NCBI GenBank assembly: GCA_021806685.1
Contig: JAJZQU010000003.1
Location: 1-40,545 of the forward strand
Origin: a bacterium
GTDB lineage: Bacteria; Patescibacteriota; Patescibacteriia; 2-12-FULL-60-25
DNA length: 40,545 nucleotides
Direction of reading: 5' to 3'
Shown: in pieces, positions 3,056 through 9,377 of the stretch
How the letters are laid out: the number at the start of each line of letters is the position of its first letter
How positions within the stretch are numbered: position 1 is the first letter of the stretch
Position numbers and translations under genes: made by a program
The notes under the pieces: model-generated
Told to the model about the DNA's origin: nothing
What the model saw: the letters and a program-made list of their open reading frames with translations, nothing else
The model's database searches: none

Positions 3056-3625
3056 TTACGCTTGGGGTGCCGGTTGGTTGAACTCAACCTTAGGCACATC
3101 TTTTTCTTCCTCGGCAGCTTCAAAGAATTTGTAGGCCTTGAATTGCAGGAAGTTGGCAATCAGGTTGGTCGGGAAAACCTGAATCTTGGTGTTGAAGTCG
3201 CGCACGTTGCCATTGTAGAAACGGCGTGAAGCTTGGATTTTATTTTCCGTGTCAGCCAATTCGGTTTGGAGCTGCAAGAAATTTTGGTTGGCTTTTAGTT
3301 CGGGATAGCTTTCGGCTACGGCGAACAGGCTCTTTAAGGTTCCCATCAGCTGGTTTTCGGCAGCGATCTTTTCATCGATGCTTTTGGCCTGCATGGCTTG
3401 CGACCGGGCTTCGGCCACTTTAGTGAAAACAGTGCTTTCGTGAGAAGCATAACCTTGGACAGTGGATACAAGGTTGGGGATTAAGTCATGGCGTCGCTTG
3501 AGTTGGACGTCAATGTCTGACCAGGCTTCGTCCGTCTGATTGCGGGACTTAATCAGGCTATTGTAAGTCACCAAAAGCCAAACGGCTAAAATAGCGACAA
3601 CTATCAGCAAAATCCATCCAAACAT
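3056..3625 (-). CDS. lemA: LemA family protein
   Basis: N-terminal TM then YNSLIKSRNQTDEAWSDIDVQLKRRHDLIPNLVSTVQGYASHE, diagnostic of LemA; next to htpX as is common. Confidence 0.95.
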   Translation of the reverse strand: MFGWILLIVVAILAVWLLVTYNSLIKSRNQTDEAWSDIDVQLKRRHDLIPNLVSTVQGYASHESTVFTKVAEARSQAMQAKSIDEKIAAENQLMGTLKSLFAVAESYPELKANQNFLQLQTELADTENKIQASRRFYNGNVRDFNTKIQVFPTNLIANFLQFKAYKFFEAAEEEKDVPKVEFNQPAPQA

Positions 3626-3699
3626 AGAGGATTTAAAGCTATGAATTATTACCCCGAATTATAGACGAATGGCTGCGCATGGTCAATAATGTTTTTCAT

Positions 3700-5088
3700 A
3701 TGCACAAAGAGCTTTTTTCGGTCTTTAAGGCCTATGACATCCGTGGGGAGTCGCCGCAGGTCATTGACGCTGCTTTTGCGGCTAATTTGGGTGCGGCTAT
3801 CGTTAAATCACGTAACCCTAAAAGGGTCATGGTTGGCCGAGATATGCGGCTTACCTCACCCGAACTCGAAAAGGCGTTGGTCGAGTCACTGTCTAGCCAG
3901 GGGGTTGAGGTGGTCAGGATAGGGCTTTGTTCAACTCCCATGTTCAATGTCTTGCTTGGTTTGGCAAATCCCAAGTTTGATTTGGGAGTCATGATCACTG
4001 CCTCGCACAACCCGGGAAAATACAATGGCTTCAAATTTTCAAACAGCGATTGCGTGCCCATCGGGTTGGACAGTGGCATGGATAAAATTCGTGATGCCTG
4101 GCCTGACCAGGCGCCAGGGGAGTTAAGCGTGACAAAAGGTTCAGTCACGGAAGATCCGACTGCGCTCGATCGTTATCTTGATTACGTTATCAAGCTCGCC
4201 AATCTTCCGGCCGACATGCCTGAAATGAAAGTTGTGATTGATGCAGGCAACGGCATGGGTGGCCATGTCTTGCCTAGGTTGCTGGAAAAGTGTCCTTGGA
4301 TAAAAGCTGAGCAATTATATTTTGACCTGGATGGCAATTTCCCAAACCACGAAGCTAATCCGATTAAGCCGGAAACATTGGATGTCTTGCGCCAAAGGGT
4401 CAAAGATACTAAGGCTACTTGCGGCATTGCTTTTGACGGTGATGCTGACCGAGTCGGTTTTGTTGACGAGCAGGGCGAGCAAATAAAGGGTGATATTTTA
4501 ACAGCCTTATTTTCCAGCTTGCAGGAAAAGGTTAAACAAGGCGGACGTGTCCTGTTTGATATCCGATCTTCTTGGTCAGTTCCCGAGACTGTCCAAGCTA
4601 CTGGTGGCATACCGGAAATCTTTCCAGTCGGCAGCGCCAAAATAAAAAACGCCATGCGTGAAAAACAGGCTGTCTTTGCCGGGGAAGTATCCATGCATTA
4701 TTACTTTAATGAGCTTTGGAATGTGGAGAGCGGGGATTATGCCATGCTGATTTTGTTAAAGTCTTTAGCTGCCAATAATCAGCCGCTAAGCTCAATGTGG
4801 AAAAAAATTGCTCATTACTTCCATTCCGGAGAAATAAATTTTGAGGTAAAGGATACAAAAAGTGTTCTTAGTAAATTGAAGGATGTCTACGCTGCCAAGG
4901 CCACTAAAGTCATTGAGATAGATGGTATTCGTTGTGAGTTTGGCGATCCTAAAGCAGACAAGGAAGCCTGGTGGTTTAATGTCAGGGCCTCCAACACAGA
5001 GCCTTTGGTCAGGTTAAACCTCGAAGCCACGACCGAAGAGCTGATGAGAGCCAAGGTTAAAGAACTGACTGACTTAATCAATTCGTAA
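3700..5088 (+). CDS. manB: Phosphomannomutase/phosphoglucomutase
   Basis: KAYDIRG, catalytic serine loop TASHNPGKYNGFK, metal loop DGDADRVGF, sugar loop GEVSMHYYF, SNTEPLVRLNLE. ORF opens at 3679; ATG at 3700 (MHKELFSVFKAYDIRG) is the likelier start. Confidence 0.93.
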   Translation: MHKELFSVFKAYDIRGESPQVIDAAFAANLGAAIVKSRNPKRVMVGRDMRLTSPELEKALVESLSSQGVEVVRIGLCSTPMFNVLLGLANPKFDLGVMITASHNPGKYNGFKFSNSDCVPIGLDSGMDKIRDAWPDQAPGELSVTKGSVTEDPTALDRYLDYVIKLANLPADMPEMKVVIDAGNGMGGHVLPRLLEKCPWIKAEQLYFDLDGNFPNHEANPIKPETLDVLRQRVKDTKATCGIAFDGDADRVGFVDEQGEQIKGDILTALFSSLQEKVKQGGRVLFDIRSSWSVPETVQATGGIPEIFPVGSAKIKNAMREKQAVFAGEVSMHYYFNELWNVESGDYAMLILLKSLAANNQPLSSMWKKIAHYFHSGEINFEVKDTKSVLSKLKDVYAAKATKVIEIDGIRCEFGDPKADKEAWWFNVRASNTEPLVRLNLEATTEELMRAKVKELTDLINS

Positions 5089-5094
5089 TGAGCT

Positions 5095-5868
5095 ATGATC
5101 GGTTTATTTGATTCTGGTATCGGTGGGTTGACTGTTGTTAAAGCCTTGTTGGAAAAAGCTCCTAAGGCGGATTTTGTGTATTTGGGTGATACGGCCCGTT
5201 ACCCATATGGCAATAAAAGCCAGGAAACAGTTGAACGTTATGCCAAAGAAGACGCGGAATATGTTATTAAGCAAGGTGCGCAGCTGATAATCGTGGCTTG
5301 TAACACTGCCAGCTCATTGGCCTTGCCTAAGTTGCAGGAAACATTCCCCAACATCCCTTTTATTGGCGTGGTCAAACCCGCTGCCCAGGCAGCCGCTGCT
5401 TTGGGACGCCATAAAATTGGAGTCATCGGGACCAGGGCTACGGTCAACTCAGGCATCTATGAAAAAGTCATCAAAAAATACGCCCCTTCGGCCGAAATCC
5501 TGCAGCGAGCCTGTCCATTGTTCGTACCTTTGGTTGAAGAAGGTTTGCTGGATGATCAAGTGACTAAAACCATGGTCAAGCGGTACCTCATGCCATTGCG
5601 CCAAGCTAATGTTAATGCCTTGATACTCGGCTGCACGCACTACCCATTCCTAAAACCATTAATACAAAGGTTCATGGGCAAGAAAGTCAAAGTTATTGAC
5701 TCGGCTGGGACAGTTATCCAGCAGGCCATGGAAAATTATCCTGACTTATTTCTGGCACAAGATAATCCCAAGCAAACAATTACCTTTACTGAGACCTCTT
5801 CAGCCTCGGACCAGGTGGCCAGCCGTTGGTTGGGCAGGCAGGTTAAAGGAGTCAAGGCTGACCTGTAA
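5095..5868 (+). CDS. murI: Glutamate racemase
   Basis: IGLFDSGIGGLTV, catalytic VACNTASS and LGCTHYPFL. Confidence 0.96.
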   Translation: MIGLFDSGIGGLTVVKALLEKAPKADFVYLGDTARYPYGNKSQETVERYAKEDAEYVIKQGAQLIIVACNTASSLALPKLQETFPNIPFIGVVKPAAQAAAALGRHKIGVIGTRATVNSGIYEKVIKKYAPSAEILQRACPLFVPLVEEGLLDDQVTKTMVKRYLMPLRQANVNALILGCTHYPFLKPLIQRFMGKKVKVIDSAGTVIQQAMENYPDLFLAQDNPKQTITFTETSSASDQVASRWLGRQVKGVKADL

Positions 5869-5923
5869 GCTCAAGCTGAAAGTTGATTCAGTGGGTTTAT
5901 TGATATATAATCTCATTAATTTT

Positions 5924-7648
5924 ATGCCTTTCGAAAATCCCTTCCTCATCCAAAAATACCCGGATTTGCCAGGCTCCAAGCCAGTTGAGTCGGCTGTAGG
6001 GAAGGTGCAGAGAGAGGGCGGGAAGATCCGCAACAAAGAAGACCGGGTCCAGGCCTATCTTGACCGCCTGGAAAAACTCATACTTGACCCGAAAAAAGAA
6101 CAAAAGACGATTCAGATGGCCGGCCAAACTCGTCCCCGGGCTCTTTCTCTCTTGAGGGAAATGGTCATGGACAAGTACGTGCGCGTGAACGAGCGGAAGA
6201 TGGCCGAAGGCGCGGCCCGGGTAGAGGAGCGCGCGGCCAGGGAAATGGGCATCCAGGCCCACTACGGCGAGCAGGAACTTGAGCAGCGCGGCGAGATCGC
6301 GGTTGAGGACCTGGAAAAATCTTTAGATAACTGGATTTCGTATCTTTCAGACGCCAACGAACCCTATCCAATCTGGTTCCGTTATTACGCCTTCCGCAAC
6401 ATCCTTGACCTCTCTGACTACGACAAAGACAAGCAGGAGTTTCCCAAGCGTTCGGCCGGCACGGCCCGCCTTTTCCCTGACATAGACCGCGGGGCCTTGG
6501 CATACGTCGAGGACAGGATTGAAGCCTCGAAGGATCCGGCTCAACTTGAGCGCCTTAAACGCGTGGAGCAGGCGAACGGCACTCCGGAGGACTTATTGAT
6601 CACTGAAGACAAGGCGGAGCGGTTCGCCAAACTCCCTTTTGCCAAGCAATACGCGGAAGGCATCAAGCAGGCCGGAGAGATCACGCCCGAGATGCGCGAG
6701 GAAACGCGCGGCAGGTGGGTCAAGTACCAGCAAGGCACCGATCCCACGGCCCTCTGGGCCTCGCTCCAGAACAAAGGCACGGCCTGGTGCACCAAGGGGT
6801 TTGCCACGGCCGAAACCCAGCTCAAAGGAGGGGACTTTTACGTCTATTACACTTTAGACAAGCAGGGCAAGCCCGCCATCCCGCGCATTGCCATCCGCAT
6901 GCAGGGCGATGCCATCGGCGAAGTCAGGGGAGTGGCCGACAGCCGGCAGAACCTGGAGGGCAACATGGCGGAGATTGCGGATGAAAAAATGAAACCATTG
7001 CCCGGATGCGAACGGTACAAGAAAGCCTCGGCTGATGTGAAACGCCTGAATGAGATTTATGTGAAATCCAAAGCCGGGCAGCAACTTAAGAAGGAAGACC
7101 TCATCTTCCTTTATGAGATCGACTCTCCCATTCAAGGTTTTGGTTACGAGGCGCACCCGCGCATCAAGGAGCTCCGTGACAGGCGCAACCCCAAAGAAGA
7201 CGCTTCCATTGTCTTTGAGTGTAAGCCAGATGAAATAGCTTGGAAGAAAGAGGATATTAAAGAAACCACCAAAGCCTACATCGGCCCGCTCTTCCCCGGT
7301 ATATTCAAGGCACTTGGCCATCTCGAACATATTTATACTTCTTTCCCTGAAGGCAGGATCAGGAAACAGTCAATCGAGATCGGAGGAAAGGACAAAAAAC
7401 AGCTCGAAGCAGAACTTGAAAAAGCCAAAATAAACGTCAATAATTATGCCCGCCACATGATGCGCCAAAAAGAGTTTACGACTGAAAAGAAACCCGAACA
7501 GGCAGACCTAGTTCGCCTTAAAGTCGGCGATCTTGGTTTTAACCATAATCCGACAACCGATGAAATTTACAAAAAAGTCGAAGAACTAGGTTTGGAGCTT
7601 TGCCCGGCCGAAGTCGGTCCTTATCTTCGTCTGGAGTATAAGGATTAG
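5924..7648 (+). CDS. DGR target protein, N-terminal body (ends at TAG directly in frame with the variable repeat)
   Basis: ORF from ATG 5924 (MPFENPFLIQKYPDLPG). Same frame continues past TAG 7646-7648 as ALNEWIYIAMKQIADPGGNPGVF..., i.e. into the VR. A PcfJ-like region around GTAWCTKGFATAETQLKGGDFYVYYTLDKQGKPAIPRIAIRM is possible but unverified. Confidence 0.8.
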   Translation: MPFENPFLIQKYPDLPGSKPVESAVGKVQREGGKIRNKEDRVQAYLDRLEKLILDPKKEQKTIQMAGQTRPRALSLLREMVMDKYVRVNERKMAEGAARVEERAAREMGIQAHYGEQELEQRGEIAVEDLEKSLDNWISYLSDANEPYPIWFRYYAFRNILDLSDYDKDKQEFPKRSAGTARLFPDIDRGALAYVEDRIEASKDPAQLERLKRVEQANGTPEDLLITEDKAERFAKLPFAKQYAEGIKQAGEITPEMREETRGRWVKYQQGTDPTALWASLQNKGTAWCTKGFATAETQLKGGDFYVYYTLDKQGKPAIPRIAIRMQGDAIGEVRGVADSRQNLEGNMAEIADEKMKPLPGCERYKKASADVKRLNEIYVKSKAGQQLKKEDLIFLYEIDSPIQGFGYEAHPRIKELRDRRNPKEDASIVFECKPDEIAWKKEDIKETTKAYIGPLFPGIFKALGHLEHIYTSFPEGRIRKQSIEIGGKDKKQLEAELEKAKINVNNYARHMMRQKEFTTEKKPEQADLVRLKVGDLGFNHNPTTDEIYKKVEELGLELCPAEVGPYLRLEYKD

Positions 7649-7822
7649 GCATTAAATGAATGGATTTACATTGCAATGAAACAAATAGCTGATCCCGGCG
7701 GCAACCCGGGCGTCTTCGAGCTGGGACGCATTGCCGACGGGCTCTGGCTGAGCCGCAACTGGGCGAAGCCCGCGAGTACCTGGCTTCCGCACGGCGAGTT
7801 GGTGTTCCGCTCTCGCAAGTGA
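7649..7822 (+). other. VR-bearing C-terminal coding segment, in frame with the upstream target ORF after TAG
   Basis: Translation ALNEWIYIAMKQIADPGGNPGVFELGRIADGLWLSRNWAKPASTWLPHGELVFRSRK*, ending at TGA 7820-7822. Internal ATG at 7676 without an obvious SD. Confidence 0.8.
7684..7820 (+). repeat. DGR variable repeat (VR), 137 bp
   Basis: Gap-free hand alignment to the reverse complement of 9241-9377: 19 mismatches, all at A in the template (about 40 template A's), none at C/G/T. Homology stops at non-A mismatches on both sides. Confidence 0.95.
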
Positions 7823-7845: not shown

Positions 7846-8805
7846 TTAGACGCTTTGGTTCTTTGGTGCTTGGATGCTTTGAGCCAGCTCAAACGTATTG
7901 CCATGGCTTAGCGAGCCTAAATATGAAGCCAGAGTTTGTGGTGACTTATTTTTTCGCAAATGTTTTAGCATTCGGTTTTTTGTTGCGGTCCTCGGTATGC
8001 GATGATTTGGGAAATGAACCCAACCTAAAAAATCCACGCCAGAGGCAAGGGTCTCGATAGAAACTTTTTTAGGGTGAAGCTCAAGATGCAATTGTGTTTG
8101 CAGAAATTCTGAAATGATTGGAATTAAACCAATCAAGTATCTCTTATCTTCATGTAAGATAACAAAGTCATCAGAATAACGAATATAGAAGCGGGTTTTG
8201 ACTTGCCGTTTTAAAAACTGGTCCAAATCGTTCATATAAATGTTCACCAAGAGTTGGCTGGTGACGTTGCCGAGCGGAAGGCCGATGTTTGCTTTTCCTT
8301 CCACATGGAAGCTGTCGATAACTTGCTCCAATAGCCAGAGGATGTCGCCATCTTTTATGCGCCACCGCAAGATATTTTTTAGAATTTCATGATCAATATT
8401 GGCGAAAAATTTTCTAATGTCGCACTTCAGCACCCAAGCAGTACGCGTGTGGTTTTTTGAGGCTTTTCTTACAAAATATCTCAGGCGATCCATGGCACGA
8501 TGCGTGCCTTTGCCAATGCGGCACGAATAGGAATCGTGGATGAACTGCTTATCGAAATACGGATAAAGAATCCTGCAGATTGCGTGGTGCACCAGCCGAT
8601 CTCGTACGTTGGCTTTGTGGATATCGCGCGGTTTCGGATCGTTGATCTTGAAAGGATGGTAGGGACCATGCCGATAGGTCTTTTCCGTCAGCTCTGCGTG
8701 GAGATTCAGGACGTTGTCCATGAAATGCATGGAAAACTCCGCGACGTCTTTGCGTTTTTTCTTGCCGCGCAAAAATTCTTGCCAGGAAGCGAGCAAATTC
8801 TCCAC
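7846..8805 (-). CDS. DGR-type reverse transcriptase
   Basis: RVRDRLVHHAICRILYPYFDKQFIHDSYSCRIGKGTHRAMDRL, KCDIRKFFANIDHEIL, DGR-type LPLGNVTSQLLVNIYMNDLD, catalytic YSDD (RYSDDFVILHEDK), LHPKKVSIETLASGVDFLGW. Start is uncertain: GTG at 8805; family-like residues continue upstream (HIYDDIIFVENLLASWQEF). Confidence 0.95.
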   Translation of the reverse strand: MENLLASWQEFLRGKKKRKDVAEFSMHFMDNVLNLHAELTEKTYRHGPYHPFKINDPKPRDIHKANVRDRLVHHAICRILYPYFDKQFIHDSYSCRIGKGTHRAMDRLRYFVRKASKNHTRTAWVLKCDIRKFFANIDHEILKNILRWRIKDGDILWLLEQVIDSFHVEGKANIGLPLGNVTSQLLVNIYMNDLDQFLKRQVKTRFYIRYSDDFVILHEDKRYLIGLIPIISEFLQTQLHLELHPKKVSIETLASGVDFLGWVHFPNHRIPRTATKNRMLKHLRKNKSPQTLASYLGSLSHGNTFELAQSIQAPKNQSV

Positions 8806-8842
8806 GAAAATGATATCATCGTAAATATGAGGCAGCCATTTA

Positions 8843-8860
8843 CTCTCTCTCTCTCTCTCT
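8843..8860. repeat. (CT)9 microsatellite between the divergent RT and avd 5' ends
   Basis: tactctctctctctctctcttaat; 18 nt of perfect CT repeats. Confidence 0.95.
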
Positions 8861-8876
8861 TAATAACGCCTCGATT

Positions 8877-9224
8877 TTGCAGCGCGTCAAAGAAAGCTAT
8901 TTGGCGTGGATGCAAATCGTGCCGCACATAAACAAAGGGGCGCGTTATACCATCGGCGCACGAATTGAAAACAAATTTCTTGATCTTCTTGAACTCGCCC
9001 ATACGGCGTATTTTACAGAACGGGAGGGAAAAGCGGAAAAGGTGTCGGAAGCCATTTTTCTTTTAGACACGTTGAAGTTTATTATCTCGGTGGCTTGGGA
9101 AGGTAAATTGATTTCGCACAAACAATTTGATGAGATCGCCAACAAACTCGATGAGGTCGGCAAGATGCTAGGCGGTTGGAGGAAAAGCCTGGACAATCCG
9201 GAAAAGAAAAACCGCACTCTGTAA
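8877..9224 (+). CDS. avd: Avd-like DGR accessory protein (four-helix bundle)
   Basis: LQRVKESYLAWMQIVPHINKGARYTIGARIENKFLDLLELAHTAYF...LLDTLKFIISVAWEGKLISHKQFDEIANKLDEVGKMLGGWRKS resembles Avd/bAvd family. Start at TTG 8877 in the track; true start uncertain. Confidence 0.85.
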   Translation: MQRVKESYLAWMQIVPHINKGARYTIGARIENKFLDLLELAHTAYFTEREGKAEKVSEAIFLLDTLKFIISVAWEGKLISHKQFDEIANKLDEVGKMLGGWRKSLDNPEKKNRTL

Positions 9225-9240: not shown

Positions 9241-9377
9241 ACTTTCGAGAGCGGAACATTAACTCGTTGTTCGGATTCCAGGTATTCGCGGGCTTCGCCC
9301 AGTTGTTGCTCAGCCAGAGCCCGTCGGCATTGCGTTCCAGCTTGAAGACGTTCGGGTTGCCGTCGGGATCAGTTTTT
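9241..9377 (-). repeat. DGR template repeat (TR), 137 bp
   Basis: Reverse complement aaaaactgatcccgacggcaacccgaacg...gaatacctggaatccgaacaacgagttaatgttccgctctcgaaagt; AAY-rich (KTDPDGNPNVFKLERNADGLWLSNNWAKPANTWNPNNELMFRSRK). Same strand sense as the RT. Confidence 0.95.

What the first reader, a model, noticed from the sequence alone, without database searches (positions are those of the whole stretch)
7640..7660. In-frame TAG splits the DGR target from its variable repeat
Seen directly: the target frame reads ...GPYLRLEYKD-TAG-ALNEWIYIAMKQIADPGGNPGVFELG...RSRK-TGA. DGR targets normally carry the VR at their C terminus, so the full protein would be about 632 residues (5924-7822). TAG is one base from CAG (Gln). 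Options: recent nonsense mutation disabling display, UAG readthrough, internal initiation at ATG 7676, or an assembly error.
Basis: partly seen in the sequence, partly recalled or inferred. Interest (0 to 1): 0.75.

Follow-up and report, generated by a model that had tools for sequence, protein, structure and literature searches.

The report
Broken DGR target beside slippery switch
A protein-diversifying element in an ultra-small (CPR) bacterium has its target gene cut short by a one-letter stop mutation, and its two working genes start across a stuttering DNA repeat that, in this and over a hundred related elements, looks like a built-in on/off switch not previously described for such elements.

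Summary
TAG at 7646-7648 is in frame and separates a 574-residue target from a 57-residue tail holding the variable repeat. The DGR is genuine: all 19 TR/VR differences are at TR adenines. In 59 homologous stretches the position is Gln (CAG/CAA) in 38 and a stop in none, so the TAG is most simply a C-to-T nonsense mutation in a conserved Gln codon. No CUA tRNA was found, RF1 is present and TAG ends other genes, which argues against readthrough. Reads are unavailable, so an assembly error or minority allele remains possible. Alone, this is ordinary.

Following the locus gave something better. RT and avd are divergent with overlapping 5' ends, and a (CT)9 repeat lies between them. A GA, poly-G or TTGA tract sits there in about 120 of 132 CPR DGRs but in none of 12 phage or plasmid DGRs. 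Conserved start codons lie beyond the tract. In the GA class one tract sets both reading frames together (30 of 32 concordant). Here nine repeat units put both genes out of frame; eight or eleven would restore both. I infer slipped-strand phase variation of hypermutation. I found no published description.

The parts
5924..7645 (+). DGR target gene, part before the stop (574 aa); N-terminal module plus the first half of the variable domain
   Evidence: 75% identical to same-genus G002, where the frame continues through the VR
7646..7648 (+). in-frame TAG at a position that is Gln (CAG/CAA) in homologues
7649..7822 (+). 57-codon tail of the target, including the VR, ending in TGA
7684..7820 (+). 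variable repeat (VR)
   Evidence: 19 differences from TR, all at TR adenines
9241..9377 (-). template repeat (TR)
7846..8838 (-). DGR reverse transcriptase, recognisable coding part (LGNVTSQ and YSDD motifs); no in-frame start codon between the repeat tract and the conserved N-terminal block
8861..9224 (+). Avd accessory protein, coding part after the tract
   Evidence: PF22296 bAvd 1.9e-13, NF033474 6.9e-17
8843..8860 (.). (CT)9 / (AG)9 repeat tract between and within the overlapping 5' ends of RT and avd; proposed frame switch
8827..8829 (+). ATG of avd on the far side of the tract (antisense of a conserved RT His codon); out of frame at 9 units, 131-aa or 133-aa Avd at 8 or 11
8925..8927 (-). 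GTG, candidate RT start on the far side of the tract (ATG in relatives); out of frame at 9 units, 359-aa or 361-aa RT at 8 or 11

Best explanation
The window holds a cellular DGR of the Patescibacteria (CPR) type. Shown: its target gene carries a nonsense codon at a conserved Gln position. As assembled, the target should make a 574-residue protein lacking the four C-terminal strands and the whole VR. Shown: RT and avd are divergent with overlapping 5' ends, and a (CT)9 tract lies between their far-side start codons and their conserved coding parts, leaving both out of frame in this assembly. Inferred: the tract is a contingency (phase-variation) repeat. Slipped-strand changes in repeat number would switch RT and Avd, and so targeted hypermutation, on and off together in a minority of cells. 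Inferred: the TAG is a separate, ordinary loss-of-function mutation, or a minority allele or consensus error. It would remove the display domain in the sequenced type whether or not the DGR is on.
For: TAG: Gln in 38 of 59 other homologous stretches, stop in none; one stop among about 100 domain matches in 288 genomes; no CUA tRNA, RF1 at 454 bits, TAG ends 4 of 25 window genes. Tract: 91 tracts within a 106-nt window at the RT start of 93 loci versus 9 in 838,653 bases elsewhere; 30 of 39 more distant CPR RTs also have one; 0 of 12 phage or plasmid DGRs. Avd lies opposite to RT in all 125 loci where it was found. All 113 tract loci have an ATG on the avd strand that is open to the tract; in the GA class 33 of 33 lie within 22 nt versus 32% at random antisense positions. 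The RT His codon that forms it is CAT 59:0 versus 1167:711 background, p = 6e-13. GA-class RTs have an ATG 58-74 nt before the tract in 31 of 33, versus 9 of 76 in the poly-G class, p = 7e-17, and RT and avd phases agree in 30 of 32. 25 of 35 GA-class RTs have no start codon after the tract. Relatives 92% identical differ in repeat number and phase: L129 has 8 units and is off, L132 has 6 and is on.
Against: No reads or expression data, so neither the TAG allele frequency nor switching was observed. In-frame loci are 27 of 113, slightly below one third, which alone does not show that frame matters. In the poly-G class RT usually has its own ATG after the tract and about half of avd genes have a possible ATG, GTG or TTG after it, so control there may be partial or transcriptional. 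Tracts are purine on the RT strand almost without exception, which could reflect another role.
Confidence: 0.7

Rival explanations
1. The TAG is an assembly or consensus error, or a minority allele that entered the consensus; most cells have an intact target.
For: The genome is a fragmented draft (61 contigs, 84.8% complete); a single C-to-T difference; N-terminal part, tail and VR are otherwise intact; the VR looks recently homed (97 of 97 non-A positions identical).
Against: No other frame damage in the target, and no independent sign of poor sequence in the window.
Confidence: 0.15
2. UAG is read through (suppressor tRNA or recoding), so the full 632-codon protein is made.
For: The tail is open and the VR diversified.
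Against: No CUA anticodon in the 34 tRNA loci found, RF1 present, TAG used as an ordinary stop. The genome is 15% incomplete, so a missing tRNA cannot be fully excluded.
Confidence: 0.04
3. The tail is a separate small VR protein started at ATG 7676.
For: An ATG lies in frame before the VR.
Against: The Met is a conserved internal residue (IAMKQI/IGMKQI) of one folded domain (pLDDT 92) in homologues. The start would leave out the first half of the domain.
Confidence: 0.03
4. The tract is not a switch: transcriptional slippage or ribosomal frameshifting at the repeat makes the right frame from any repeat number, giving low but constant RT and Avd.
For: Most assembled loci are out of frame (86 of 113 by the nearest avd ATG), yet DGRs persist and VRs look recently homed.
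Against: Long GA dinucleotide and TTGA tetranucleotide tracts are poor sites for RNA polymerase slippage. Tract length differs between near-identical loci.
Confidence: 0.2
5. The tract acts as a DNA or RNA element (promoter spacer, ribosome-binding stretch or polypurine tract for cDNA synthesis) rather than through reading frame.
For: Purine on the RT strand almost always; in the poly-G class often followed by TANNNT and the RT ATG.
Against: A (TTGA)7 tract replaces it in L121. Far-side start codons are conserved beyond codon bias. In the GA class it lies inside both coding frames.
Confidence: 0.15

Closest known systems
Diversity-generating retroelements (Bordetella phage BPP-1 mtd/avd/TR/brt; the Patescibacteria-only DGR clade 2 of Roux et al. 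2021, PMC8144416)
   Same: RT with SQ and YxDD motifs, Avd, TR/VR with adenine-specific changes, VR at the C terminus of a C-type-lectin-like domain.
   Different: avd is on the strand opposite to RT with overlapping 5' ends, and a repeat tract lies across the starts; the 12 phage and plasmid DGRs examined have no tract, and where avd is annotated beside RT it is on the same strand. The target here is cut by a stop.
Inactivated DGRs (nonsense, frameshift or insertion in RT with intact TR/VR; DiGReF survey, PMC3521204)
   Same: A DGR with a single disabling mutation.
   Different: Here the nonsense codon is in the target, not the RT; RT and avd frame loss is at a repeat tract and looks reversible.
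Contingency (phase-variable) loci with simple sequence repeats, such as Neisseria and Haemophilus surface genes (general knowledge; Moxon et al. 2006 cited in PMC3521204)
   Same: Short tandem repeat in the 5' coding region; unit changes shift the frame; near-identical relatives differ in repeat number.
   Different: The switched genes are the hypermutation machinery itself, and in the GA class one tract sets two divergent genes at once.

Membership tests
Diversity-generating retroelement | TR and VR differing essentially only at TR adenines | tested here: met
   19 of 19 differences at TR adenines, 97 of 97 other positions identical
Diversity-generating retroelement | DGR-type reverse transcriptase nearby | tested here: met
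   RVT_1 3.2e-23 with GLPLGNVTSQ and YSDD motifs
Diversity-generating retroelement | Avd-type accessory protein | tested here: met
   PF22296 above cut-off, NF033474 6.9e-17
Diversity-generating retroelement | VR in frame at the C terminus of an intact target | tested here: not met
   TAG 7646-7648 separates it; intact in homologues
Diversity-generating retroelement | variable domain with C-type-lectin fold | tested here: inconclusive
   Model of the L127 homologue pLDDT 92; best PDB matches are C-type lectins, but weak (E 0.04, TM about 0.4)
Phase-variable contingency locus (simple sequence repeat) | hypermutable repeat far above background at a fixed gene position | tested here: met
   91 tracts at 93 RT starts versus 9 in 838,653 other bases
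Phase-variable contingency locus (simple sequence repeat) | repeat number decides whether start codon and gene are in frame | tested here: met
   Window: 34-aa/73-aa products at 9 units, 131-aa/359-aa at 8, 133-aa/361-aa at 11; RT and avd concordant in 30 of 32
Phase-variable contingency locus (simple sequence repeat) | repeat number varies between close relatives | tested here: met
   L111 G9 versus L178 G12; L129 8 units versus L132 6 units; L210 G11 versus L214 G9
Phase-variable contingency locus (simple sequence repeat) | reversible switching of expression within a population | not testable with these tools
   needs reads or culture
Stop-codon recoding or UAG suppression | suppressor tRNA or loss of RF1 | tested here: not met
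   no CUA tRNA found, RF1 present; genome 85% complete

The most novel reading that the evidence does not exclude
Across CPR bacteria, the DGR hypermutation machinery (Avd, and in the GA-tract class RT and Avd together) is itself phase-variable: a slippage-prone repeat in the overlapping 5' ends of two divergent genes sets both reading frames at once, so only a minority of cells hypermutate their target at any time.
Probability: 0.65. Interest if true: 0.85.

Novelty: new variant of a known kind. Interest (0 to 1): 0.66.

Why it matters
The stop codon alone is an ordinary loss-of-function mutation. The repeat tract, if it works as inferred, answers how tiny-genome bacteria could keep a permanent hypermutator safe: it would be off in most cells and switched on at random, with one repeat serving two genes. 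It joins two classic diversity generators, slipped-strand contingency loci and DGRs, in one circuit. It can be tested directly by mining existing metagenome reads for tract-length polymorphism linked to VR diversity. It may also explain why many CPR RT and avd genes appear to lack a start codon.

Tried and rejected
DGR mutagenesis as the cause of the TAG: rejected, because it lies 38 nt outside the VR and the homologous codon is CAG or CAA, so a C change is needed. Suppressor tRNA or recoding: none found. Other VR copies in the genome that could make this one dispensable: none for this TR. IMG/VR scan with the conserved 17-mer CAAATATCCCTCTTTGA, hoping for population variants, gave 4 hits that are not DGR junctions. 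Pfam and PDB sequence searches of the variable domain gave nothing significant. A standard -35/-10 promoter around the poly-G tract was considered, but by eye the spacing (20-22) does not fit 17, so it is not claimed. Literature searches for DGR with phase variation, phase-variable, slipped-strand mispairing, homopolymer, simple sequence repeat, contingency loci, or frameshift plus Avd found no description of the tract. Two key papers (Paul 2017, Wu 2018) are not held.

Full report
Observation. The frame starting at ATG 5924 runs 574 codons to TAG at 7646-7648 and then 57 further codons to TGA 7820-7822. The tail contains a variable repeat. VR 7684-7820 and TR 9377-9241 (minus strand) are 137 nt long with 19 differences, every one at a TR adenine, and 97 of 97 non-adenine positions identical. 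The RT ORF (minus strand, 7846 to about 8838) has RVT_1 and the motifs LGNVTSQ and YSDD. The ORF on the plus strand at 8861-9224 is Avd. TR and VR of this pair occur once each in the genome. A second DGR with its own TR, VR, RT, avd and an intact 274-residue target lies on contig C14.

What the TAG is. In the same-genus genome G002 the homologue is 75% identical and has the VR in frame within a 698-codon open frame, with CAG at the site. Of 59 other homologous stretches spanning the site, 38 have Gln (24 CAG, 14 CAA), 8 have a gap, the rest other sense codons and none a stop. In a sample of 288 genomes of the class, about 100 domain matches include one with a stop, the window's. A model of a homologous domain (L127, 162 residues, pLDDT 92) puts the site just before the last four strands. 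The best solved matches are C-type lectins, but weak (E 0.04). The truncated protein would lack these strands and the VR. No tRNA with anticodon CUA was found among the 34 tRNA loci (one odd candidate on C10 contains no CTA anticodon loop), RF1 is present, and TAG ends 4 of 25 window genes. I conclude a nonsense mutation in a conserved Gln codon (inference). Reads were not available, so an assembly error or minority allele cannot be excluded. Similar disabled DGRs (nonsense in the RT) are known (PMC3521204).

Where the locus led. The RT frame in the window has no start codon before its conserved N-terminal block, and Avd has none except a TTG; both frames run into a (CT)9 repeat at 8843-8860. 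I therefore compared the junction in relatives. With 13 loci from the search of near relatives and 80 named loci of many CPR phyla (Woesebacteria, Nomurabacteria, Uhrbacteria, Moraniibacteriota and others), a poly-G or GA tract lies within 60 nt of the RT start in essentially every locus: 91 tracts in 93 loci, against 9 such tracts in 838,653 bases elsewhere in the same loci. One locus (L121) has (TTGA)7 instead. More distant RTs (36-79% identity to the nearest query) show it in 30 of 39. Twelve DGR-type RT loci from phages and plasmids of other hosts have no such tract, and where avd is annotated beside RT it is on the same strand. In CPR, avd is on the opposite strand in 125 of 125 loci where it was found.

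How the tract could work. On the avd strand every one of 113 tract loci has an ATG 5' of the tract with an open frame into it. In the GA class all 33 are within 22 nt (32% of random antisense positions would be), and in the poly-G class 76 of 76 are within 75 nt (60% at random). In many loci this ATG is the antisense of a conserved RT His codon, which is CAT 59 times and CAC never, against 1167:711 for other His codons of the same genes (p = 6e-13). In the GA class RT itself lacks a start after the tract in 25 of 35 loci, and an ATG lies 58-74 nt before the tract in 31 of 33 loci, inside antisense avd coding sequence, versus 9 of 76 in the poly-G class (p = 7e-17). Both strands of this stretch then code (Avd SILxRIKEGYLxW, RT NPNQISLFDSxQNRG), which fits its striking DNA conservation. 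The codon boundaries of the two genes coincide on each side of the tract, so the same repeat number brings both in frame: 8 loci both on, 22 both off, 2 discordant. In the window 9 units give 34 and 73 residues, while 8 or 11 units give 131 or 133 residues for Avd and 359 or 361 for RT. The C14 DGR (10 C) has avd off too; 8 or 11 would open it. Near-identical loci differ in tract length: L111 G9 and L178 G12; L129 8 units (off) and L132 6 units (on) at 91.8% identity.

Limits. In-frame loci make up 27 of 113, a little below one third (p = 0.036), so frame statistics alone would not show function; the weight rests on tract conservation, start-codon conservation and the GA/poly-G contrast. The top-80 set was chosen by RT similarity. 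In the poly-G class RT usually has its own ATG after the tract (56 of 78), and about half of avd genes have a possible start after it, so the switch may act on avd only, or on transcription. Transcriptional slippage or frameshifting is a live alternative. No switching was observed.

Verdict. The given finding is correct in fact, and its best reading is an ordinary nonsense mutation (low interest alone). The repeat tract across the RT and avd starts, present here and in most CPR DGRs examined, is the surprising part. I found no description of it in the papers that could be searched; two relevant papers were not held.

Noticed in passing
window 8843-8860 and loci L105-L246: Poly-G, GA or TTGA repeat tract at the RT/avd junction of most CPR DGRs, with far-side start codons; described in the main report.
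   Followed up: yes
L105 (G000:C14) 3545-6380: Second complete DGR in the same genome with an unrelated intact 274-aa target and a C10 tract that leaves avd out of frame.
   Followed up: partly
L004/L114 (G002:C2): Same-genus relative keeps an intact target with VR, but no RT, TR or avd relative was found in its genome: an apparently orphan target.
   Followed up: partly
L011 (G111:C63), L022 (G066:C12), L007 (G109:C28): Homologues of the target with stops in the N-terminal part (TAG, TAG, and TGA with a frame shift): target genes seem to decay now and then.
   Followed up: partly
L120, L122, L117, L123 junctions: In the poly-G class the tract is often followed at once by TANNNT and, about 7 nt later, the RT ATG, as if a leaderless promoter abuts the tract.
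   Followed up: no
L022 (G066) after residue about 460: The N-terminal module of the target is joined there to leucine-rich-repeat-like units (SAEGLELPESVGGDLDL...), so the module is used with other C-terminal domains.
   Followed up: no
L108 (G000:C10:2833-2919): tRNA-like gene with an unusual anticodon arm that ARAGORN reads only weakly (as Pro-GGG); identity unclear.
   Followed up: partly
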